From IMG/VR virus record IMGVR_UViG_3300024348_000293, positions 1 to 21,097 of that record: a stretch of DNA of 21,097 nt. One strand, given 5' to 3'. Shown in pieces: positions 1,617-21,097 of the stretch. Numbering within the stretch: position 1 is the first letter of the stretch; each line of letters opens with the position of its first letter. The stretch comes from a virus. The notes beneath the pieces are model-generated. The model did no database searches. It saw only the letters and a list, made by a program, of their open reading frames with translations, and had not been told where the DNA came from. The position numbers were made by a program, and so were the translations under genes.

Positions 1617-4600
1617 TTACTCTTTTTTAGTTCCCAAAAGAAGGGAGTGAACACTGAAGTCGTACCCATCTTCTCGAATGTCGTATATTGCTTTGCCTGT
1701 GGTCCAACCTTGACCGGTTCCTGGTACGCCAAGCATGGTTGTTACAACGTCTGTGGTTGCTTTTACTTGGAATAAAGTTGGCTCGTCACCCTCCCACAGG
1801 CTTTTAGTAAATCCTTTAACACCACTGATTGAATTTGAAACAAACTGGGCGGTTGGAGATCCTGCATATCCGTACCCAGAGAACGCGCCAGAGGCAACAT
1901 CACGGGCCAAAGGTATGGCAGCAAGTGGAAGCATTGCTACGTTCACAAGATACTGTTGCCAAAACTCGTCCCACTCGTCTTCATCATCTGGGATGCCTTC
2001 GCGCACAAGCATCTCTGCTGCAGTCGTGACTCCAAACAACCATGCGAATTTAACAGCTAGGTTGATTGGGTTGATCTGCCCAGATCTTGAGCCACGAGTG
2101 ATGTCGCGGGTCATGTTGCCTTGGCTTGAAAAGAACGTCATAAACATGGTGTACATTTTGACGTATTCAGAGTTGTCTCGCATCAACGCAGCTTGGTCTT
2201 TAATAGATCCAGAGCCTTGGAAATTCTCCACTGCCCAATCTGCTGCCTGCACTGAGAGTTCTTCTGCGCGTGCTGTCAATGCTTCCACTGTGTCAAAGTC
2301 GTTTGGATCTAGTGACGCTTCAAGTTCTGACATTTTCTTAAAGTAGGCACCATACCATGTTGGCAGGTCGACGCTGTACATCTGAATCAACGCGATGTGC
2401 TTCATTGAAAATTCTTGCAGATCAGCAAGCGGCCCAGATTTATTTTCAAGCGCCTTGAAAGCGTTCGACATCTCTCGGTCCATTGTCTTCATACGATGCA
2501 CAAGAACCTTTGACTTCTCCATTGCCACTGCTACAGCATCACTTGTTTTTGCAGGGTTGCCGTAGAGGTGCAGCATTGCCTTGGAAGTATTTTTTGCACC
2601 GATGTTAGCGATGGTGACTGACAGACCAAGGGTCTGCATAAGTCCTGTGGATACCTTGAACCCCATAGCGCTCATGGTGATACCAAAGCGTATGCGTCTC
2701 ATCGAGCCGGTGAAATAGCCTTGCGACTCTTGATTGCTGCCTGCATTTGCAATGTCGTTCAGCCAAGGCTTGAACAGTCGATACTCAGCAACGCCCATCG
2801 TTGCTTTGATGGCCTCTGTGATCTCAGGATCTCGCAGTAACTTATCCACAGACTTCACAGCTTCGTAGTGCGTGATGTAGTGGATAACTTCTTGGATGTG
2901 CCCAGGGATAACATCAAGGCCAAGCTTGATTGGGTATGTTGCTTCGATACGCTCGATCTTCGCACCGGTTGTGGCGTTCGGACGGAATGTTCCACTGGTC
3001 GCAGACATGCCTGCCGCTGCTGCAGTCTTCTGATCGATCTCGCGTGTGTCAGCAATTGTGCTACGCATTGGGTCTGCTTTCAGTGGGAAGTATCCACCTT
3101 TGTACACACCGAACGGTGTCTGCACTTCGTGGATCTCAACCTTACCAATGTCTAAGCCTGATGTGCGCTTATGCACAGCATTCATTGGCTCATACAATAG
3201 TTCAAGTTGGTCCCAAACTAGCTGTACAAAATCCCAATCTTCTTTGGTCAGGTGGCTCAATACCTGCTTCAACATTGGGTTATCTTGGCTGACCTCTTCT
3301 TCAGACAGCGCCCAACCTTCGCCCATCAGCAGCTTCTTCAAGTTGCCTGGGTTACCGGTGTTCAGCGCAACACTGATGATCTCTGATCCTGTCAACGTCT
3401 TTTGGTTAGACTTGGTATTTTCCAAACCAACTATGCGGAATTTTCGAGCGTGGCGCTTCTTGGACTTTCTGTCTCTGGCAGCAATGGCCTTAACAATTGG
3501 AGAACCAACAGCGTCATGCAACAGCATTTCTTCGTGCTGTGCATCTGTGAACTGCTGAGAAACCAGTTGGTGCATAACACCGCTAGTTTCTCTGTTGTCC
3601 AACCAACGGATCAGGTACGGGATCTTGGTCAGAGATGCCAAGCTTTTTAGCGCCAGGTTCTTGTTGGTTTCTTTATAAGCAGAAACACCATAAGTGAACT
3701 TGGACTTGACCTTGGAGATTGACTCTAGCGCTTTCGCCTTCGCCTCTTCAAAGCTTAACTGCTCACCTGCAAGCTTCATCTTGTCAGTGAAGATAGCAAT
3801 GTGTTCGATGTTCCGAACAGAATCATAAATGCCAACAAGATCACTAAACGGCAGCTTCTTGTAGTGCGTTCTGATGTCTTCGTTAAGCGCAGTTGGGGTC
3901 AACTGGATGTTGTCGCCATTCTCTTTCTCACGCTCTAGCGCCCACACTCTGATGTTGTCCCGCTCGGTCTGTGCCATCGATACTGACTTTCTAAATTCAA
4001 AGCGCTCTTGTAGGTGCAGGATCTGTTCAAGATATTGCTTACCCGCACGGCCTACACGCTCAAGGACTTTCTTCTTCTTGAACTTAGCCATGTGGGTAAC
4101 GATCTTGTCTTCCATCGCTTTAGCATCCAAAGCCGAACGATAGAGATAGAAGTTCATCGCCTGTCGTGTCTTTGCGGCCTTCGCTGCTTCCTTGTCACCC
4201 TTGTCCATTGCTGCCCGGGCATCCTGTGCTGCCTTGATCTCAGCCCTGCGATATTTATCAGGACGGATCTCTGACAATGACAGCTTGCCTATGGCTTCTT
4301 CTGCAAGCGCCTTCAGGATCTGCTTGTCGCTCTGTGGCGTTGGTTTGCCCTTGTTCAGTATCTTCAGTTCGGAAAGAATTAACTCTCCTCTCTGCTCGTC
4401 ATGGACAGCCTCACGCGCAAGCTTCTCAATGGTGCCATCGTTAAGGATGTCGCCATGCTCTTTTACCATCTCTGCTTCAGCCTGCTCTTTCGCAAGCATT
4501 GAAGAGCGCTTGGTTTCAATCAACTGCGTGATCAATTCATCGCCTGACGCAAAGCCAAGGGCATCTGCAGCGGCATCGATGTCCACACCATCTGCAACGG

Positions 4601-7600
4601 TTAGCGCGTTGTTGATACCTTTAAGTTCAGGTGGCAATACCTTAACATCCAAAACATCAAGAACGTCTTGGCGGTTTAGCTTCAACTCGCTACCCTTTTC
4701 TGCTAGGGCTGCTCTTGCCATGTGGATCGGCTGTTGGTCCAAACGTGACTTTATTACTTCAGCGCGGGTCTTTAATTCTTCAGCCCACTCTTTCTCTTCG
4801 CGTGTGCGGATCTGCTTCATCACTTTTTCAAGTAATGTTTCAGTTGCTTTTTCGTCTGCAGAATCTTGCTTTTCTTTGTATTTTTTAAACTGCTCTTCGG
4901 TCATCCCTGCCATCACTGCATCAGTAAACAGTGGTCGCAATTCTGCGTCACTCTTCTCTGCAGCAACCTGCTCGTCAACACTCAACATTGCGTCAAATAC
5001 CTTGCGGATGTTGTCGTCAATCTTGACTGCGCCTGACTGCGCTTCCAGATTTTTCAGGGTGCCGTACACAGACTTCATCCACTGGCTGAATGCTTTGAAT
5101 GCTTTCTTCAATGCAGACACTGGTGCCTTGCCTTCCATGATGTATGCTTCATAGGCACGCGCCCAATGTTCGTGCATGGCACGCTCAACTTCTGGGCTGC
5201 CTTCTCTTGTGTAAACGTACTGTGTGACTTGCTCGACAGACACGCCTGCTTCTGCAGCGATTGACTCTGCATTGTCCAACCACCATCTGAATATCGGCTG
5301 CATCAGCGGGTCATTAGAATTGATCATGGTGTCTAGGAAATAGTGGCCCATCTCATGGATTAGCGTGGACCGATCAGATTGCTCGAACAGGGAGATTATC
5401 CGCTTTTCGCGGTTGTAAGATCCCCTGGTTGTGGTGCCGGATTCTTGGTCTTGTAAAAGTTGATTTGCATCATAAGGGCTGTATGAGCCATCGTAAGCCA
5501 TGTACACAATGTCTGGCTCGCCATTGTTATACTTTCCAAACACGGCCTTGTCCCAATCGCTTGGCTTATAGTTCTCATTCCACTCGTCTCTTCCAACTTC
5601 TTTAAATCCATTTATTCCATACATCCCAACTAAAGCGGTGTCGAATGCGTCAAGCTTGGTGCCACCTTGCTCAACAGCAAGAGACAGCATCGATACAACC
5701 TTACCGCCTCCATCACTGAAAACGCTAACGATGTCACCATCTTTTTTTATGGCAAACCCAGACAAGCCATCTTCGCTTCTGAATAAGCGCATGTCTTGGT
5801 ACTCTTCAGCAGAGTACACATAAACTGCTGCGCCAAAAACAGTTGAATCTTTTGATGATTGTATTGCAGACATAAAGTCCACGGCACTTTCTGCCGTAGA
5901 CTCCATTTCGACCATATCTACTGCAGGAACTTCTGAGGCAGATAGTATGTTTTTGAATGTTCTGTTTACCTTGTAGACTAAGCCCCGAATGCTTCCAAGT
6001 GTTCCAGGGCTTCCCTTTCCGTAAGACCGTGATTTTGCATCGTTAGTTCGACTAAGTCTCGCGGAGACGAAGACGTTGCGCTTAAGGAATTTTGCTCGTT
6101 CTCTTCCATTGAATCCTTCAGATACTGTAGATCCAACTTCAGAGGACCCCGCTCCTCCATCATCCTGTCGTGCTGCTCTTGTGCTGATTCTGGCTGCATA
6201 ATCTACCTCTGCTTTATTAGTTGCTTCTTTGATTGACTCGCTAGGAATGCCCTTTGCTATAGCAAGATCTGCTGCAGCGTTAGCGTAATCCGGTGCTTCG
6301 TCATCTGTATACCCTGCGCTCACATCTTTGCTAGACTTTGCCATATCGTAAAGTCTGCGCTCTGGATACCACATTAAAGCCTGCAGGTCAGACATTGTCA
6401 ATTCTGGATAGCCATTATTTTGTAAATCTTTTAAAATATTTCCGAATATCTTTCTAATCCAGTTACGTTCGGTGCCGGTCTCCGGGGCTTCTTTCTGCCC
6501 ATCAAGATACTTCGCAAGAGAATTACCTGCTTTGCGAAGGTTTTCTCCTACGGCTGTCTTATTAAACTTGTCTCTGTTTGCAGGAAGCATTGACGCTTTC
6601 TGAATATCAAGCGCTAATTTTTCAAGATTGCCTACTTGCAGCTTCGCGCCAAGCGTTTCTGCAAACTCTTTTGCTGCTGCTTTGTCTTCTTTAAGAAGCT
6701 TGACCAAGTCCTTTATCTCTGACTTTTTAAGCTTCACCATATCTGGGCGGTATTCTATAAGCGTGCCTGTCCACCGGCCCCATGTTCGCATCAGCCATCT
6801 GTCCATCGTTAGCTGATCAAAGTAACCGTTTAGATTGCTAAAGAAACCATTGCCGATTTTTGGACCAAGGATTGATGCGCCACGGACTACGGTGCCTGCA
6901 TTCTCTCCCGTAACGTCAAGACCTATCCGTCTAATCTGCGCAATGGTAAAATTACTTACCATGAATTTTCTTAGCGTTTCGATGCCCATTCTTTCGACAA
7001 GTGTGTTGAATGATTTAAGGCTATCGTTGATAGCTTTCTGGGCGTTTCCTGCTTTGATGTTCGTTGGCATCTTGCCGGTTCGCTTATAGTGTTCATAAGC
7101 TATTTCCGCAAGTTCAAAGTTTTTGTCTACCTTGATTCCGTTTGACGTTACAGCCAACGCCCAAGTGAATGCAAACCTGGCTTCTTGGTCTTCTGCCAAC
7201 TCAGGATGGATTGTCGCCAATATGTTTAGGGCTTTCTGAACCGTGACATCATACCAACCGACTGCATTCTCGTTTGTCTTTAACGCATGAAGAGCATCTC
7301 TTATCCCAACCCTTACCAGGTATTCCTCTGTTGCTGCATTGTCAACAGCAAGATCCACGCCTGCTTCTTTTGCAGCATTGTTTGTATCGTTTTGGATGTC
7401 TACTTTTAACTGTCTGTTTGTTGAGTAGTCGCCATTCTTTGCGCGGTCCATAGCGTTTTCGAGGGTTGTGATTTCATCGATAGTAGCCGGGATTGGTTTT
7501 GCAGAAGATACCTTCTGCGCCAAAAGGTTGGCAGAGTCTTTGTAGTCAGGATCGAATGCTGCGTTGACTGAGCGGATGTTTTTGTGACTTACCCCGATTT

Positions 7601-10600
7601 CTTCGCGCGACCCTTCAGAAGGAGTCGTCGGGAGGTAGTCACCACCTTGAGACTCATATACTACATCATTACTACCAAGATGGGAAACCTTGAGACTGGT
7701 TATTCTTGTCGGATTTACCTCTTGTTCTTCAGGATTACCAGTCAAATCAACTGAGTTTATTGATACACTTTTCGCAGGGATTGTAGCCTCAATTAAAAAT
7801 TTCTGCTTACTCCCCTGATTGTAAGTATATGTAAACCGCTCGGCTATGTCTTCTGCCAAGTATTTTTCAATGGTCCAGTGATCCCCAATGTTTTTTAAAT
7901 CCAATTCAGAAATGTCATTGAGCGTAATGTATCTATAGACTTTCCCACCATATTCTGAGATATGGTTTACTGCATTTAAAAAAGACTCTAATTCGTTAAA
8001 ATTCTCATCCTGTCTATAGTAATACTCATTCCACGACTGTAATAGGTTAGAAGATACAAATACATCACCAACAGTGCCACCAATATTCAAAACATTCTCA
8101 ACATTAAACCCCATCTCAACAGCACGAGTCATGCGACCCTCTGGTGACATATCCAGACCTTTCTCGACAGCACGAGTCCACTCCACGGCTTCGCCTGTGT
8201 CAGTTCCTGCATAGCCTTGTTGACGCGCTTGAAACACCACAGCTGCATCAGGGTTCATTGCTGCCTGAATCTCTTCCTGATTCTCTTTCGTGATTGGCAT
8301 GGCGTTTGCGCCTGATACGAACAAATCAGCAGATGTGCCTGTGCCAAACTCTTGGCCTTTGAATTGATAATTGTCAAAGGTAATGTCAGATGGGTCTTGT
8401 GATGTAGGGTATGTGACGACAACAGGTACACGGCTAACACCGGCTGCTGCTAATGCTGCCATGCGGTGACGGCCTTCGTGACCAATGATCTTGCCTTGAC
8501 CATCTGTTCGCAAGAACGGTGTTTGACGCTCGGCCTTTAATTCTACCGGGTCAAGTGGCATTGACTCATCAGCAATGGTCTGTGGATCAGGGTGAGTAGA
8601 GTTGACAAACTCAGCGGGGTTAATAAAAATAACCTGCGCTCTAGTCTCGCCATGCGGGTAGGCCCACTCGCGCACAGTCTGGTCAATACGCTCTGGTGTC
8701 CATGCTGCGTCTTCACCAAGCCCTGTTACTTCTAAGAGGCGCTGTACACGCTGTTGTGGCTCTGCCTCAAGCACCAATGCTTTCTCAGCTTCCGTCAATT
8801 CTGACGAGAACCCAAGGCTGTCAAACTCAGCAATCAAGCTTTCAAGTGTTGCTTGATTCAGATCCTTCAGCTTATTCTGCAGGCCGGAATGTGGACCAAC
8901 GATGGCGTTAAGCCCGTATGTCTCAATGTATTCTTTAACAGGAATGCCTGTGCGCTCTGCTGCAGAAATGATCTGCTGCTTATACAACTGCGACTGTAGG
9001 GTTACCTCTTGGCGTGTTAGTCGGCCCGTGTCAGAACCTTGGGTGATGAACTTGTCAATCTCTGCATCGATGTAGTCAGACTCTTCCTGCCTTGCCACCG
9101 CTTGCTCTTCCATCATCTCGTAGGTAGCAGCGAGCGCTTCTTTCTGGCGGTCCATTTCGTTTAGAGTGAATGTGTTGTCAGACATCTTGATGTCGCCACG
9201 CAGCGCCTGCTCATGCTCTGAGCCAACCACGTTCTGTGCGAAGTCACCAATTGGCATCTCAACTGTGCCACCCGTTGCTGCAGCCTCTTCAAGCTTGTCA
9301 GCGATTGATGCGAAGGCAGGGTCAGTTGTGACATCGATACCGTTCTCTTTCGCATACGCCAATACAGACTCTGCGTCCATGTGGATGTTTGCGCCAGGGG
9401 CTACTGTCTGCAAAAACTCGTTAAGCTTTTCTGGGGAAATTTCTTTTAGGTCGGTGTCGTTAACCACTGCGATGATCTCGCTAATGGTGTTCTGCTCTTT
9501 GAATGTGTCAGTGCGTTTGGCGTAATTCTTTGCCCTTGCGATGTCGGCTGTCGCTCCTGCAACTGCCATAGGACCAACCATGCCTTGGGCTAGGATCATG
9601 CCCCACACGCCACGGGTTAACGCTTCTTCAACAGATACGTCCTTGTCTGTCCAGATGGTGCCACCGATATATTCCAGGGATTCTTGAACCCCCTCTGTGC
9701 CTGTCTCGACAGCAAAGCCCTTGCCCTGTTTCTTTGCTATGGCTTTCAGCAACTGATACCCGTCTTTAGCATTCAGTATCTGCCTGCTTTCTTTGACCAT
9801 TCCCATTAGGTTCTTTAGACCCATTCGGTCAAATGAAGCGCTGACCACAGACCACGGGAGCGACATGGCAAGGTCAGTCATGTTTGGTTCTGCTCTGCCG
9901 TTGTTCTGCGCTCTTTCTGTTGCGACATCGTAGTTCAATGCGACAATATAAGATGCCGTGCCAACGCCACCCGCCAACATTGCTACCATGTATGGCAGGG
10001 ACTGAGCGGTTGATGTCGCCATTAGATAACCAAGATCCTTTGCAAGATCCCATGTTACGCCTTTATCTTTGAGGCTTTTCTGTATTTCCTCAGTTGATGT
10101 TCCGGCTCTTGGCTTATAATCCCAAAAAGAAACAGCGTTCTCGGTAAGGCTTACAGCAAGAGATTCTTGATCGATTCTCTTTTCCTTATATTCCTTCAGG
10201 CTCTCTGGCAGAACATCCCAATGTGGTGACTTATCGTTAAGCCAATTGGCAACCAACTGGTCAGTCTTTGCGATGGCATGTCCGATGCCTGCAAAGGTGC
10301 CCATAGCTGACAGGCCCATATCTTTTATCGTGGACCTTTTCTCTTCAGGCGGTGTCAGTATTCCCTCGCGCATCATAATGTCGTCAAGCTGTGACAACGT
10401 GGATATGTTGTCAACATACAGCTTCGCATTATTTGAGTCGGCTAAAAACTTAACCACATTTGGGTTCGTATGCTGCAGCGTGTCTATGTTGACATTATCG
10501 ATTGACTGCTTGGTTTCAATTTTGGTTCTGTTCGCACGCACCACATCAACCGGGTAACCGGTCAGCTTGGATAGTTCAAGCAGCTTGGCAAAATCTTTTG

Positions 10601-10850
10601 GAGACTCATTCTGTTGACCTGCGATTGCAGATCGGATAGATACATTGGCCTTAGCAGTAGGCGGTGGGATTACCGGCTCTTGTACGGGCTGCTCATTGAG
10701 CGCCTTCCCGATTGCATCGTAGTTAAACTTTGGCTTTTTTTTGGGTAGTTCTGAAAGCAGTGGTGATGCAGGTACGATAGGATCCTGCTCTTCATCACCC
10801 AATGATGCAAGGATTTGATCTCTAGTAATGTTCCCGAATTTACTCGCCAT
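1617..10850 (-). CDS. Giant multidomain (polyvalent-type) internal virion/ejection protein, 3077 aa
   Basis: This protein holds the T7 gp16 position, between the gp15-like gene (11-nt overlap) and the tail fibre. The ATG at 10848-10850 has an AAGGGG ribosome site. Approximate domains: hydrophobic helices 275-305 and 415-440; ParB/DdrB-like segment 700-830 with GHEGRHRMAALAAAG at 790; ADP-ribosyltransferase-like segment about 900-1110 (R973, H991-W992-T993, E1042-Q-E1044) followed by an IRSVNAAFDPDYKDSANL linker; helix-hairpin-helix/glycosylase-like segment about 1150-1390 (K1331, D1350); GNAT-like segment 1590-1785; zinc-peptidase motif HEMGH 1832-1836 with E1901 in YEAYIMEG as a possible third ligand; charged helical region about 1980-2290; C-terminal region 2690-3077 with hydrophobic helices, of the kind called 'large polyvalent protein-associated' domains. 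By analogy it is packaged and ejected first with the DNA. The individual activities are inferred from motifs. I see no clear lysozyme/transglycosylase signature, unlike T7 gp16. Confidence 0.85.
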   Translation of the reverse strand: MASKFGNITRDQILASLGDEEQDPIVPASPLLSELPKKKPKFNYDAIGKALNEQPVQEPVIPPPTAKANVSIRSAIAGQQNESPKDFAKLLELSKLTGYPVDVVRANRTKIETKQSIDNVNIDTLQHTNPNVVKFLADSNNAKLYVDNISTLSQLDDIMMREGILTPPEEKRSTIKDMGLSAMGTFAGIGHAIAKTDQLVANWLNDKSPHWDVLPESLKEYKEKRIDQESLAVSLTENAVSFWDYKPRAGTSTEEIQKSLKDKGVTWDLAKDLGYLMATSTAQSLPYMVAMLAGGVGTASYIVALNYDVATERAQNNGRAEPNMTDLAMSLPWSVVSASFDRMGLKNLMGMVKESRQILNAKDGYQLLKAIAKKQGKGFAVETGTEGVQESLEYIGGTIWTDKDVSVEEALTRGVWGMILAQGMVGPMAVAGATADIARAKNYAKRTDTFKEQNTISEIIAVVNDTDLKEISPEKLNEFLQTVAPGANIHMDAESVLAYAKENGIDVTTDPAFASIADKLEEAAATGGTVEMPIGDFAQNVVGSEHEQALRGDIKMSDNTFTLNEMDRQKEALAATYEMMEEQAVARQEESDYIDAEIDKFITQGSDTGRLTRQEVTLQSQLYKQQIISAAERTGIPVKEYIETYGLNAIVGPHSGLQNKLKDLNQATLESLIAEFDSLGFSSELTEAEKALVLEAEPQQRVQRLLEVTGLGEDAAWTPERIDQTVREWAYPHGETRAQVIFINPAEFVNSTHPDPQTIADESMPLDPVELKAERQTPFLRTDGQGKIIGHEGRHRMAALAAAGVSRVPVVVTYPTSQDPSDITFDNYQFKGQEFGTGTSADLFVSGANAMPITKENQEEIQAAMNPDAAVVFQARQQGYAGTDTGEAVEWTRAVEKGLDMSPEGRMTRAVEMGFNVENVLNIGGTVGDVFVSSNLLQSWNEYYYRQDENFNELESFLNAVNHISEYGGKVYRYITLNDISELDLKNIGDHWTIEKYLAEDIAERFTYTYNQGSKQKFLIEATIPAKSVSINSVDLTGNPEEQEVNPTRITSLKVSHLGSNDVVYESQGGDYLPTTPSEGSREEIGVSHKNIRSVNAAFDPDYKDSANLLAQKVSSAKPIPATIDEITTLENAMDRAKNGDYSTNRQLKVDIQNDTNNAAKEAGVDLAVDNAATEEYLVRVGIRDALHALKTNENAVGWYDVTVQKALNILATIHPELAEDQEARFAFTWALAVTSNGIKVDKNFELAEIAYEHYKRTGKMPTNIKAGNAQKAINDSLKSFNTLVERMGIETLRKFMVSNFTIAQIRRIGLDVTGENAGTVVRGASILGPKIGNGFFSNLNGYFDQLTMDRWLMRTWGRWTGTLIEYRPDMVKLKKSEIKDLVKLLKEDKAAAKEFAETLGAKLQVGNLEKLALDIQKASMLPANRDKFNKTAVGENLRKAGNSLAKYLDGQKEAPETGTERNWIRKIFGNILKDLQNNGYPELTMSDLQALMWYPERRLYDMAKSSKDVSAGYTDDEAPDYANAAADLAIAKGIPSESIKEATNKAEVDYAARISTRAARQDDGGAGSSEVGSTVSEGFNGRERAKFLKRNVFVSARLSRTNDAKSRSYGKGSPGTLGSIRGLVYKVNRTFKNILSASEVPAVDMVEMESTAESAVDFMSAIQSSKDSTVFGAAVYVYSAEEYQDMRLFRSEDGLSGFAIKKDGDIVSVFSDGGGKVVSMLSLAVEQGGTKLDAFDTALVGMYGINGFKEVGRDEWNENYKPSDWDKAVFGKYNNGEPDIVYMAYDGSYSPYDANQLLQDQESGTTTRGSYNREKRIISLFEQSDRSTLIHEMGHYFLDTMINSNDPLMQPIFRWWLDNAESIAAEAGVSVEQVTQYVYTREGSPEVERAMHEHWARAYEAYIMEGKAPVSALKKAFKAFSQWMKSVYGTLKNLEAQSGAVKIDDNIRKVFDAMLSVDEQVAAEKSDAELRPLFTDAVMAGMTEEQFKKYKEKQDSADEKATETLLEKVMKQIRTREEKEWAEELKTRAEVIKSRLDQQPIHMARAALAEKGSELKLNRQDVLDVLDVKVLPPELKGINNALTVADGVDIDAAADALGFASGDELITQLIETKRSSMLAKEQAEAEMVKEHGDILNDGTIEKLAREAVHDEQRGELILSELKILNKGKPTPQSDKQILKALAEEAIGKLSLSEIRPDKYRRAEIKAAQDARAAMDKGDKEAAKAAKTRQAMNFYLYRSALDAKAMEDKIVTHMAKFKKKKVLERVGRAGKQYLEQILHLQERFEFRKSVSMAQTERDNIRVWALEREKENGDNIQLTPTALNEDIRTHYKKLPFSDLVGIYDSVRNIEHIAIFTDKMKLAGEQLSFEEAKAKALESISKVKSKFTYGVSAYKETNKNLALKSLASLTKIPYLIRWLDNRETSGVMHQLVSQQFTDAQHEEMLLHDAVGSPIVKAIAARDRKSKKRHARKFRIVGLENTKSNQKTLTGSEIISVALNTGNPGNLKKLLMGEGWALSEEEVSQDNPMLKQVLSHLTKEDWDFVQLVWDQLELLYEPMNAVHKRTSGLDIGKVEIHEVQTPFGVYKGGYFPLKADPMRSTIADTREIDQKTAAAAGMSATSGTFRPNATTGAKIERIEATYPIKLGLDVIPGHIQEVIHYITHYEAVKSVDKLLRDPEITEAIKATMGVAEYRLFKPWLNDIANAGSNQESQGYFTGSMRRIRFGITMSAMGFKVSTGLMQTLGLSVTIANIGAKNTSKAMLHLYGNPAKTSDAVAVAMEKSKVLVHRMKTMDREMSNAFKALENKSGPLADLQEFSMKHIALIQMYSVDLPTWYGAYFKKMSELEASLDPNDFDTVEALTARAEELSVQAADWAVENFQGSGSIKDQAALMRDNSEYVKMYTMFMTFFSSQGNMTRDITRGSRSGQINPINLAVKFAWLFGVTTAAEMLVREGIPDDEDEWDEFWQQYLVNVAMLPLAAIPLARDVASGAFSGYGYAGSPTAQFVSNSISGVKGFTKSLWEGDEPTLFQVKATTDVVTTMLGVPGTGQGWTTGKAIYDIREDGYDFSVHSLLLGTKKE

Positions 10851-12975
10851 TGAATAGCCCCTTCAAATACAACTCAAGAATAACATTCAGTTTGTTTTTT
10901 CTGCCTTGATCAGCCATCGCTTCTTCAATCATGGCGTTCAGATCCTCATCATCCTGAACCTCAAAGACAGTGGCTATTGTATCAGAATCAAACCTAACTT
11001 GCGCGTCACTATGGGCGGGGTTGCTGTTGTAAGCGTAGATTGCATTTTGGATATTATAGATGTCGTCAATAGGGTAGTCAGACAGTGGCTTGTCGAACCG
11101 GGTTGGCTTTTGCAATTCGTACATTGCGTTTCTCGCTTCGCCCTCTGTCATCTCTCTGCCGTTTGCCATAGCAAACCGGTCCTTCATGCTTGATGCGACA
11201 CGGTTAAATCCAGATACCCATGCGGCCTGCTCGGCCTTGGCATTGCGTGAAGACTTATCCCAATCTGAACCGAATATGTTTCTCACCGTGTCTTCTGCTA
11301 TATCGCCAAACTGCGCGTAGGTCAATGTGTCAGGACCCTTTGCTGCAACCTTGTCTGCAGCCTTCTTCCTAGCTTCTTCTTCAGCCTTGGTCTGCGCTGC
11401 AGATGACAGGTCGCCAAGTTCTTCAGCGTGCATTTCAGAGTAGTCGTAGATGAAAGTATTGATATGGTCTGTGTACTGAGTCTCTGTCAGTTCTTTGTTG
11501 CCGTTGGCCTCTTCAGCTTTGACAAGACTATTGGCAAGTGCGCCACGGAGATCTGCGTGCCACACTCGGGCACCAAGTTCGTCTGCCTCTGAGAATGCTG
11601 TAAGGTCTTCGCCAAATACTTTCTCGACAGCATCTGACATGACGGACTGTCTGGTTGCCAATCCTGATCGTACCATGCGGTCTTTGTCAGCGGCAGCCTG
11701 GTCGTTCACTGCATTGTTTGCAACGATCCATGACGCTTCGACTCTGGAATAATCATCAAAGTCCAACTGATCTGCATAATCCGCAAGATCAATCTTCGCA
11801 AAATCTTTGTAGTTCATTGTCAACAGGTCAGTGTAAACCTTGTCAACAGTGATAGGCTCTTCACCAATTTTAAATGCCCTTAACTGATCCTTTAATGCTT
11901 GCGCTTGATTTCCTTCTAAGCTGCCGATCTCTTCATTTGTTAGTGGCTTAGTTCGCTGACCTGTGCGAATTTCTGCAGAAAGAGCAGAGTAAAAACTCAC
12001 TTGGTCTGCGCGGTTAACTCGCTGCTCAAACAGGTATTGTGTCTCGACCTCTTCCATCACCGCTGCCTTCACATCACGGTCTGCGATCTCTTTGGCTGCA
12101 GCGATACGGTCACTAAGTTCGCCACCGGCTGCAGTGATGCGTTCAACATTATCCTTGATCGCTACTTCCTGCGTCTTCTCTTCAATCGCTGTTCTCAACT
12201 GCTCTTTAACGTCAGGCTCAAGCATCGCGCTGTATTCCGAGAATAACTCTGATGCGATTTTTGGGTCGTCAGCGCTTATGGCACCTTGGATCCTAGATGC
12301 GTGCATGGTCGCTTCGTACTTAGATACAGCCTCTATTACGGATGGGTCGTTCTCATCTTCAATGCCCTGCAGCCGCATCTTCTCTTTGACAGCATCTTCG
12401 CCAAGAAAAAGCATAATGGTCCAATCGCTTGGTGCCTGGCCGCCTTCCTTGGTAGCGACCGTGTCTGGCGATGCGTACATGGATGATGCGTTCTTGATCG
12501 AGTTCTGAATGACCGCATCTTGTGTGGTCATATTGTACTCATACGCGCCCTTGGCAGCGTGTTGATCTATGCTTCTATTGTTAGACAAAACGTGTTGGTT
12601 TGTGATCCGATCATATATTTTCAGAGCATACGGGCTTAGTCCTTTTGAATGCTGCTGCTTGATCTCAGAGATCTTTGTCTTGGTTCCTTCCGCGCCATCT
12701 CTGGCTGCTTTTGTTTGGGTATTAAGATACCCACCCTCTGGACTGAGCATGATATTGTCGCGGTCAGTCTCGAAGCCCAAGACGGCATTGGTGGCATCTG
12801 CTTCCCAGTTCTCTTTCTGCGTTTCTTCTAGGGCTGCTGCTAACTCTGACCCACCCGCCAATGCGCCCTTGAGGGCACCGTTCTCAAAAACCTGTGGGGA
12901 TAATGCTGACTGCTTAAAAGTCCGATTGGCCTGTGCGCTGACCTCTGGCCCAGTTACCCTATTTACTTTTGGCAT
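10840..12975 (-). CDS. Internal virion protein, T7 gp15-like by position, 711 aa
   Basis: The ATG at 12973-12975 overlaps the upstream stop as TAATG and is preceded by an AGAGGTGA ribosome site 3 nt away. The protein is almost entirely charged, helix-prone sequence with no signal peptide and no obvious membrane segment. Ala/Glu/Asp/Lys-rich stretches recur (for example KAEEEARKKAADKVAAKG). Its size (711 aa against about 747 for T7 gp15) and its place between a short gp14-like gene and the giant gp16-like gene support a role as the periplasmic segment of the DNA-ejection tunnel. Sequence similarity to T7 gp15 itself is not evident to me, so the assignment rests on order, length and composition. 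It ends 11 nt inside the next gene, consistent with translational coupling and matched production of the two ejected proteins. Confidence 0.72.
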   Translation of the reverse strand: MPKVNRVTGPEVSAQANRTFKQSALSPQVFENGALKGALAGGSELAAALEETQKENWEADATNAVLGFETDRDNIMLSPEGGYLNTQTKAARDGAEGTKTKISEIKQQHSKGLSPYALKIYDRITNQHVLSNNRSIDQHAAKGAYEYNMTTQDAVIQNSIKNASSMYASPDTVATKEGGQAPSDWTIMLFLGEDAVKEKMRLQGIEDENDPSVIEAVSKYEATMHASRIQGAISADDPKIASELFSEYSAMLEPDVKEQLRTAIEEKTQEVAIKDNVERITAAGGELSDRIAAAKEIADRDVKAAVMEEVETQYLFEQRVNRADQVSFYSALSAEIRTGQRTKPLTNEEIGSLEGNQAQALKDQLRAFKIGEEPITVDKVYTDLLTMNYKDFAKIDLADYADQLDFDDYSRVEASWIVANNAVNDQAAADKDRMVRSGLATRQSVMSDAVEKVFGEDLTAFSEADELGARVWHADLRGALANSLVKAEEANGNKELTETQYTDHINTFIYDYSEMHAEELGDLSSAAQTKAEEEARKKAADKVAAKGPDTLTYAQFGDIAEDTVRNIFGSDWDKSSRNAKAEQAAWVSGFNRVASSMKDRFAMANGREMTEGEARNAMYELQKPTRFDKPLSDYPIDDIYNIQNAIYAYNSNPAHSDAQVRFDSDTIATVFEVQDDEDLNAMIEEAMADQGRKNKLNVILELYLKGLFNGE

Positions 12976-13454
12976 TACTCACCTCTGCTGTATCGATACC
13001 AATCGGCTGCAACTGATCCTGCTCCTTGAAGCAGTATCCCAGTGGCCTGACTTTGTTGAGAACTATAGACAGCCTCACCGGTTTCTCGGTTAAATTGTGC
13101 CTGCTGATTTAGTGCAGACGCTTGCTCTTCTGACGACTGACGTATGCGGTATGATGACAGTTCCATCATTATGTCTGTGTCATTTTGGATATTCTCTGCA
13201 GTACCTGAGTCTACAAACACCCCGCGCGCTGCAAGTGTCGCACGCTGTGATGACTGTACCCCGGAATACTGCAGCCGCAAGTCATTGTCGTCTTGCACGG
13301 ATTTATTGCGAATGCGCTTGGCATCTTTATCAAGTTGGTTGGCATTAAATTCTGCAACCTTCTTGTTATTTTTCGCCTCTTTCTTTTTGGCACTAGCGCC
13401 ACTGAGCGCTCCTAAGATTCCCATGCCTATCTGAAAAATTGCTAAAGGACCCAT
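12975..13454 (-). CDS. Internal virion protein, T7 gp14-like, 159 aa
   Basis: This is a short protein with a hydrophobic, glycine-rich N-terminus (MGPLAIFQIGMGILGALSGASA), then a polar helical body rich in Gln, Asn and Ser (KKKEAKNNKKVAEFNANQ; SSYRIRQSSEEQASALNQQAQF) and a small hydrophobic C-terminal patch (GILLQGAGSVAADWYRY). This layout is typical of podovirus gp14-type proteins, which are ejected and form the outer-membrane part of the channel. The central LAARGVFVDSGTAENI segment resembles the conserved core of this family in many podophages. The start is the ATG at 13452-13454, three nt after the nozzle gene stop, with only a weak TTGAG ribosome site, so it may depend on coupling. Its stop overlaps the next start as TAATG. 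Confidence 0.78.
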   Translation of the reverse strand: MGPLAIFQIGMGILGALSGASAKKKEAKNNKKVAEFNANQLDKDAKRIRNKSVQDDNDLRLQYSGVQSSQRATLAARGVFVDSGTAENIQNDTDIMMELSSYRIRQSSEEQASALNQQAQFNRETGEAVYSSQQSQATGILLQGAGSVAADWYRYSRGE

Positions 13455-20589: not shown

Positions 20590-21027
20590 CTATCTCTTGG
20601 ACACCCCAAGGATCCTCTTCTTAACTTGGGCCGAAACATTGGCAGACTTCTTAGCTGCATTGGTTGGCTTCTCTGCAGCCTTGGGGCCGCCTTTGCCTTT
20701 TGCTTCGCCGCCCGTTGCCACTGCCTTGCCTTTGCCATTTGCCTTGCCCTTCACACCTCGCTGAGACTCTGTGTGCAACGTGCCACCCAGAGACTTCTTG
20801 CGCTTTTCTGAGATCCTGCGCTTGATCTCATCGATGTTGAACCGGTCTGCCCACTGCACTGGATTGGTGTTAACCTCTCCGATTGGCTCAGGCGTTGGCT
20901 CTGGATCCTTATCCTTATCCTTATCCTTATCCTTAATCGGATCTTTCACAGGATCTTTCACCGGGTCTTTTTCGTCCCAAGGGTCCTTATCCTTATCCTT
21001 TCTAAACGGATCCTCGATGTCAGCCAT
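20590..21027 (-). CDS. Low-complexity Lys/Asp-repeat protein upstream of the portal, unknown function
   Basis: From the ATG at 21025-21027 (MADIEDPFRKDKDKDPWDEKD), with GAGG 5 nt upstream, the protein has 145 residues. Residues 8-45 are KD and KDP repeats (DPVKDPVKDPIKDKDKDKDKDPE in two phases). They are followed by a short charged domain (QWADRFNIDEIKRRISEKRKKSLGGTL) and a basic Gly/Ala/Lys tail (KGKANGKGKAVATGGEAKGKGG). The frame stays open upstream of this ATG to the window edge (a GTG at 21094-21096 is in frame), so a longer product starting outside the window cannot be excluded. The position just before the portal and the basic KKSL-containing tail recall T7 gp7.3, a small tail/scaffold-like virion protein, but the similarity is only in character. 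I do not recognise a family. Confidence 0.7.
   Translation of the reverse strand: MADIEDPFRKDKDKDPWDEKDPVKDPVKDPIKDKDKDKDKDPEPTPEPIGEVNTNPVQWADRFNIDEIKRRISEKRKKSLGGTLHTESQRGVKGKANGKGKAVATGGEAKGKGGPKAAEKPTNAAKKSANVSAQVKKRILGVSKR
20906..20935 (-). repeat. Hexanucleotide tandem repeat, five copies of TCCTTA (plus strand)
   Basis: Five exact TCCTTA units encode alternating Lys and Asp on the minus strand. Two more exact units lie at 20984-20995, and between the two arrays a diverged repeat (ATCTTTCAC twice) encodes KDPVKDP. Because the unit is 6 bp, changes in copy number would lengthen or shorten the KD stretch without shifting the frame. Confidence 0.85.
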
Positions 21028-21097
21028 CGTCTCCTCGTCTCGTCTGTGCTTGTCTTCTCGGTTCTGCTCTCTAGCCCTAGCGCGCTCAGCTTTCACA

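What the first reader, a model, noticed from the sequence alone, without database searches (positions are those of the whole stretch)
7690..8170. ADP-ribosyltransferase-like domain inside the giant ejected protein
Residues about 900-1110 show an ordered set resembling the R-S-E class of ADP-ribosyltransferases: VYRYI with R973, an HWT triad-like strand (991-993) followed by an A..IAERFTYTY helix, and E1042-Q-E1044 in NPEEQEVNPT. The preceding MTRAVEMGFN phrase is the usual lead-in to such domains in phage polyvalent proteins. If packaged and ejected, it would modify host or competing-phage targets at the first moment of infection, as T4 Alt does, but in a podovirus and fused to the ejection machine.
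Basis: partly seen in the sequence, partly recalled or inferred. Interest (0 to 1): 0.75.

Follow-up and report, generated by a model that had tools for sequence, protein, structure and literature searches.

The report
Swapped ADP-ribosyltransferase module in phage protein
A giant phage protein, probably injected into the host, carries in its usual enzyme slot a foreign module that looks like a different class of ADP-ribosylating enzyme, which suggests that phages exchange this weapon like an interchangeable cartridge.

Summary
A strict R-[ST]-ExE pattern appears in 0 of 2000 shuffles (post hoc). Context says more: residues 878-917 and 1090-1113 are the conserved borders of the ART (ADP-ribosyltransferase) slot of phage polyvalent proteins. 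All 37 other slots with these borders hold a recognisable ART-PolyVal (H-Y-E) core (18-101 bits, leave-one-out); the window core scores -0.1 bits. Blind GC segmentation of the gene picks the same stretch, codons 915-1067. An independent near-identical contig has the same junctions. So a foreign cassette of ~150 codons replaced the usual core; its motif order fits an R-S-E ART. Related contigs show such swaps at DNA level: similar flanks around unalignable cores, and one 95%-identical core in unrelated flanks. The ART fold is not proven: no profile or structure match, and single-sequence AlphaFold models are poor (pLDDT 37, 51). ARTs in ejected podovirus proteins are known; new would be an R-S-E-like core in this slot, a class the 2017 survey says genuine polyvalent proteins lack, and DNA-level cassette exchange.

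The parts
1617..10850 (-). Giant polyvalent/internal virion protein ORF, 3077 aa
   Evidence: phrog_9880 over residues 1786-3060 and LPD22 at 75-160
8100..8219 (-). Lead-in border (residues 878-917) of the ART slot
   Evidence: 58% identical to L002; 70-77% DNA identity to other phages ending at residues 916-920
7641..8090 (-). Swapped-in core (residues 921-1070), putative R-S-E-like ADP-ribosyltransferase
   Evidence: -0.1 bits against the HMM of 37 ART-PolyVal cores; blind GC segmentation gives codons 915-1067 = 7650-8108, GC 35% versus 47%
7932..7934 (-). R973, proposed NAD-binding arginine of strand 1 (VYRYI)
   Evidence: aligned to the conserved Arg column of the T4 ModA/ModB family HMM
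7872..7880 (-). HWT (991-993), proposed strand-2 S/T motif
7833..7844 (-). A1003..F1006, helix after the S/T motif
   Evidence: aligned to the conserved A..F of the Mod family; helix predicted
7719..7727 (-). E1042-Q-E1044, proposed ExE of the ARTT loop; EQEV also occurs in T4 ModA
7512..7583 (-). Tail border (residues 1090-1113, NIRSVNAAFDPDYKDSANLLAQ) of the ART slot
   Evidence: DNA identity up to 94% over 36-44 nt from residue 1091
6171..7502 (-). ~440-residue conserved domain downstream of the slot (1117-1560), relatives in 466 virus contigs
8271..8753 (-). ParB/Srx-like region (700-860; GHEGRHRM at 790-797)
   Evidence: weak PFIN match only (E 0.03-0.05, below cut-off); reading of the motif
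5496..5837 (-). phrog_2563-like region (1672-1785), GNAT-like by inspection only
   Evidence: E 3e-11
5337..5357 (-). HEMGHYF zinc-metallopeptidase motif (1832-1838)
   Evidence: weak SprT-like/M78 matches
10840..12975 (-). 711-aa gene next to the giant gene, no family match; probable internal virion protein by position
12975..13454 (-). Internal virion protein (phrog_418)
   Evidence: E 3e-21

Best explanation
The stretch is an ADP-ribosyltransferase effector module of the R-S-E type inside a polyvalent internal virion protein. It arrived by cassette exchange: a foreign, AT-rich piece of ~150 codons replaced the H-Y-E ART-PolyVal core that this slot normally holds, between two conserved border segments. 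Shown here: the slot, its borders, the absence of the usual core, the deviant composition, and the same kind of swap in related phages. Inferred: that the protein is packaged and ejected with the DNA (gene position, relatives); that the module folds as an ART, with R973 holding NAD, T993 positioning it and E1044 (with E1042, in an ARTT loop) transferring ADP-ribose to a host macromolecule early in infection, as T4 Alt does. The target is unknown.
For: Borders match the ART frame (profile E 1.5e-35, high posteriors only at the two ends; DNA identity ends at residue 916-920 and restarts at 1090-1092). 37/37 other slots with this frame hold ART-PolyVal cores at 18-101 bits, leave-one-out; window -0.1 bits. 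GC segmentation without prior knowledge picks codons 915-1067, LLR 14.4, not reached by 200 codon or 200 block shuffles; effect remains after correcting for amino acids, z -4.2. Same junctions in independent contig L121: 18 mismatches in 10,247 nt upstream, 2 synonymous ones in the gene. Motif order R...T...ExE, 0/2000 shuffles. The T4 Mod-family HMM aligns R973 to the conserved Arg and A1003/F1006 to its A..F at 2.4 bits, more than genuine Alt gets (1.7). The poor model gives helices, a strand holding R973, a helix after HWT, and strands at 1016-1024 and 1052-1059. Swaps elsewhere: L214/L234, L216/L242, L234/L246.
Against: No Pfam, PHROG, NCBIfam or PDB sequence match to any ART; hhalign against the Mod profile no better than shuffles; up to 58 of 3000 shuffles reach the window's Mod-HMM score. 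AlphaFold models pLDDT 37 and 51; Foldseek and VIA-align bring up no ART among the leading matches. No homologue of the core outside its own virus, so conservation of R/T/E cannot be tested. 'HWT' is not STS, and ARTT position 3 is Asn, not aromatic. Low GC is common in this slot (35/37 relatives, mean -6%; window -13%), so composition marks the slot, not this swap alone.
Confidence: 0.72

Rival explanations
1. The core is a decayed or fast-diverged ART-PolyVal (H-Y-E) domain; the R-S-E motif is a coincidence and the domain may be inactive.
For: Lead-in and tail are those of ART-PolyVal; the place of YHGT reads VLNIGGT, so the His is gone.
Against: Core scores -0.1 bits where even the most divergent of 37 slots scores 18; reading frame fully open, and the near-identical sister contig shows only synonymous changes in the gene.
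Confidence: 0.1
2. The core is a different effector fold swapped into the slot (not an ART), as the wider bay before the same 440-residue domain also holds ASCH and other domains in relatives.
For: The wider bay is variable: ASCH, a weak ParB_N match and unassigned domains occur upstream of the same downstream domain. No ART profile matches the window core; the leading structural matches of the poor model are not ARTs.
Against: Where the specific lead-in and tail borders are present, 37 of 37 slots hold ART-type cores; motif order fits R-S-E.
Confidence: 0.16
3. Assembly chimera or sequencing artefact joining two genomes.
For: Sharp compositional borders.
Against: An independent, non-identical contig (L121) carries the same junctions; frame open throughout.
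Confidence: 0.02

Closest known systems
ART-PolyVal (PF18760; H-Y-D/E ARTs of polyvalent proteins, Iyer et al. 2017, PMC5512222)
   Same: Same slot, same lead-in and tail, same kind of giant virion protein, same presumed delivery
   Different: The core is not recognisable as this family and lacks the strand-1 His; it carries R...T...ExE
T4 ModA/ModB and Alt (R-S-E ARTs; Alt is packaged and injected)
   Same: Motif order; EQEV as in ModA; helix with LN before strand 1; Alt is delivered with the DNA
   Different: Not alignable with significance; R to E distance 71 here versus about 93-100 in ModA/ModB; the T4 proteins are separate genes, not modules of a polyvalent protein
MuF-fused Alt/VIP2 ARTs of phages (PMC9503650)
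   Same: R-S-E-type ART fused to a head-packaged protein
   Different: Fusion to the MuF head protein, not a swap into the ART slot of a podoviral internal virion protein
Cassette exchange of polymorphic toxins
   Same: Conserved frame with exchangeable effector cores
   Different: Here the exchange is internal, between two conserved borders of a virion protein; no immunity gene seen

Membership tests
R-S-E class ADP-ribosyltransferase | Arg, Ser/Thr and E/Q-x-E in this order | tested here: met
   R973, T993, E1042-Q-E1044; Thr in place of Ser, no STS; placement on strands rests on a weak model
R-S-E class ADP-ribosyltransferase | ART fold: split beta-sheet with NAD cleft holding the three residues | tested here: inconclusive
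   AlphaFold pLDDT 37 and 51, no fold match
R-S-E class ADP-ribosyltransferase | Sequence-profile match to a known R-S-E family | tested here: inconclusive
   No Pfam match; Mod-family HMM 2.4 bits in correct register, T4 Alt itself only 1.7; hhalign no signal for either
R-S-E class ADP-ribosyltransferase | NAD-dependent transfer or NAD hydrolysis | not testable with these tools
   needs biochemistry
ART-PolyVal (PF18760) | H-Y-E/D core recognisable by profile | tested here: not met
   no PF18760 match; -0.1 bits against 37 cores of this slot
ART-PolyVal (PF18760) | Conserved lead-in and tail seen around these ARTs in relatives | tested here: met
Polyvalent protein of phages | Several unrelated catalytic or LPD domains in one large polypeptide | tested here: met
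   LPD22, phrog_2563 region, HExxH motif, ParB-like motif; only LPD22 is above a curated cut-off
Polyvalent protein of phages | Packaged in the virion and delivered | not testable with these tools
   inferred from position beside phrog_418 internal virion protein and tail genes

The most novel reading that the evidence does not exclude
The ART slot of phage polyvalent virion proteins is a recombination cassette: short conserved borders (about 45 codons before, 25 after) let unrelated phages exchange whole enzyme cores in frame, even between the two great ART classes, so that a phage can change the ADP-ribosylation target of its injected protein in one step.
Probability: 0.5. Interest if true: 0.72.

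Novelty: new variant of a known kind. Interest (0 to 1): 0.55.

Why it matters
[quoted passage not shown] An R-S-E-like core in the very slot of the H-Y-E family would be an exception, and the DNA-level swaps give a concrete, testable route by which phages change the chemistry and target of an enzyme that is probably injected at the first moment of infection.

Tried and rejected
Search for other copies of the core: phages and plasmids (tblastn), viral contigs, genome contigs, 50 related virus records, 797 genomes of the order and phylum of L326: only the near-identical L001/L003/L121. These searches reach close relatives only. L133 is a chance match in a terminase. Weak matches to Cas12a/Cpf1 REC2 (Pfam 14 bits versus cut-off 27; PADLOC E 0.0016) are taken as chance. 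Fold searches on both low-confidence models gave no consistent fold; no ART stood out, which excludes nothing. hhalign against the T4 Mod family gave no signal, nor did it for T4 Alt. The idea that low GC proves this particular swap was weakened by the control of 37 slots. The lead-in and tail identities are inflated because these segments were used as search patterns. In one search the ASCH query from L186 had six mistyped leading residues, outside the matched part.

Full report
What was checked. The window is a 21,097-base virus record. The finding lies in a single ORF, 1617-10850 on the minus strand, 3077 aa. Upstream on the same strand lie a 711-aa gene without family match, a PHROG internal virion protein, and tail genes, so the giant ORF has the place of an ejected internal virion protein. 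That it is packaged and ejected is inference. Pfam sees only LPD22 at residues 75-160 above cut-off; PHROG 9880 covers 1786-3060. Relatives of the giant protein occur in Vibrio phages, Limnohabitans phage DC33 and Bordetella phage BPP-1, among others.

Is the motif more than chance? A strict R-[ST]-ExE pattern with ART-like spacing was found in 0 of 2000 shuffles of the protein, a loose one in 56 of 2000. In 2.88 Mb of fetched phage DNA translated in six frames the loose pattern appears only in this virus and once elsewhere by chance. The pattern was written after the fact, so this is support, not proof.

The slot. The phrase before the domain (GYAGTDTGEAVEWTRAVEKGLDMSPEGRMTRAVEMGFN) and the phrase after it (NIRSVNAAFDPDYKDSANLLAQ) are conserved in other phages. 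There the space between them holds ART-PolyVal, the H-Y-E/D ART of polyvalent proteins. Relatives L005, L006 and L007 have PF18760 at the same place, directly before the ~440-residue domain that also follows it here. From tail and lead-in searches I extracted 37 distinct slots; 34 have the strand-1 His, three are variants. A profile of these slots matches the window at E 1.5e-35, but only the two ends align with confidence.

The core is not the usual one. In leave-one-out tests every one of the 37 cores scores 18 to 101 bits against the others; the window core scores -0.1 bits, E 75. At DNA level the similarity to other phages stops at residue 916-920 and resumes at 1090-1092. A blind search for the most deviant GC segment in the whole gene returns codons 915-1067 (7650-8108), 35% GC against 47%, not reached in 200 codon shuffles or 200 block shuffles, and still z = -4.2 after correction for amino-acid content. 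Control: cores in this slot are AT-rich in 35 of 37 relatives, mean -6.3%, sd 4.3%; the window's -13% is among the strongest but not unique. So composition speaks for the slot as a place of exchange rather than for this swap alone. The junctions are not an assembly error: contig L121, with 18 mismatches in 10,247 nt upstream and two synonymous ones in the gene, has them too.

Exchange in relatives. L214 and L234 share flanks at 80-94% DNA identity while their cores do not align; L216 and L242 likewise, with 76-91% in the flanks. L234 and L246 share a core at 94.7% identity while their flanks do not align. These look like natural cassette swaps. Iyer et al. 2017 raised recombinational cassettes only as a possibility, for kinase-bearing polyvalent proteins of one organism.

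What is the new core? Its motif order is R973 (VYRYI), HWT 991-993, A1003..F1006, E1042-Q-E1044. In T4 ModA and ModB the corresponding region reads LNEIIK...LWRG / LYRG, then A..F, then DEQEV / REQEW. A Mod-family HMM aligns R973 to the conserved arginine and A1003/F1006 to its A..F, at 2.4 bits; up to 58 of 3000 shuffles score as high, while T4 Alt, a genuine R-S-E ART, scores 1.7. hhalign gives nothing for either. The ARTT rule X-X-aromatic-X-X-E/Q-X-E (PMC7827354) fits T1037-E1044 except for the aromatic position, which is N1039; SdeA/SidE lack it too. AlphaFold without an alignment reached pLDDT 37 (907-1108) and 51 (928-1070), pTM 0.38 and 0.48: helices, a strand holding R973, a helix after HWT, then strands, compatible with an ART but not evidence for it. 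Fold searches found no convincing match. So the ART assignment rests on slot identity plus motifs. I put it near 0.75-0.8, and the whole explanation at 0.72.

How it would work. Packaged and ejected with the DNA, the module would bind NAD with R973 and use E1044 to transfer ADP-ribose to a host macromolecule, as T4 Alt does with RNA polymerase. Every step after the gene's location is inferred. The metallopeptidase motif HEMGH (1832) could release the module, as Iyer et al. propose for such peptidases; this is also inference.

Comparison. Iyer et al. [quoted passage not shown] A 2022 survey (PMC9503650) lists Alt/VIP2 and N4-type ARTs fused to MuF head proteins. Hence 'an ejected ART in a podovirus' is known; 'an R-S-E-like core exchanged into the H-Y-E slot' is, as far as these tools show, new. 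I rate it a new variant of a known kind.

Noticed in passing
L214/L234, L216/L242, L234/L246 (around the slot): Apparent natural swaps of ART cores at DNA level: similar flanks with unalignable cores, and one 95%-identical core in unrelated flanks.
   Followed up: partly
L134-L213 and L326, upstream of the ~440-residue domain: The bay before this domain is variable: ART-PolyVal in many, ASCH in L186 and (by eye) L326, a weak ParB_N match in L194, others unassigned.
   Followed up: partly
L196, L202, L238, L319: ART-PolyVal-type domains whose strand-1 His is replaced by Arg (LYRG, VFRG) or Lys (FKGM, YKGY), possible intermediates between H-Y-E and R-type active sites.
   Followed up: no
37 slots listed: Slot cores are AT-rich relative to the rest of their gene in 35 of 37 cases.
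   Followed up: partly
window 20590-21096 and L121 1-1400: Upstream ORF is low-complexity: a KDKDKDKD stretch and, further upstream in L121, coiled-coil-like EAAAAKQKEADAKLSRAEQERKARDE repeats.
   Followed up: no
L326 (Comamonadaceae MAG JAIYBB010000012.1): Only bacterial genome contig found to encode a relative of the 440-residue domain; with Limnohabitans phage DC33 it hints at betaproteobacterial hosts.
   Followed up: no
window 7641-8069 (model of residues 928-1070): Best viral fold match is an uncharacterised 160-aa protein of an uncultured Caudovirales phage, A0A6J5LJI0, 24% identity over 144 columns, E 0.02; possibly a solo homologue of the core, but the model is poor.
   Followed up: no
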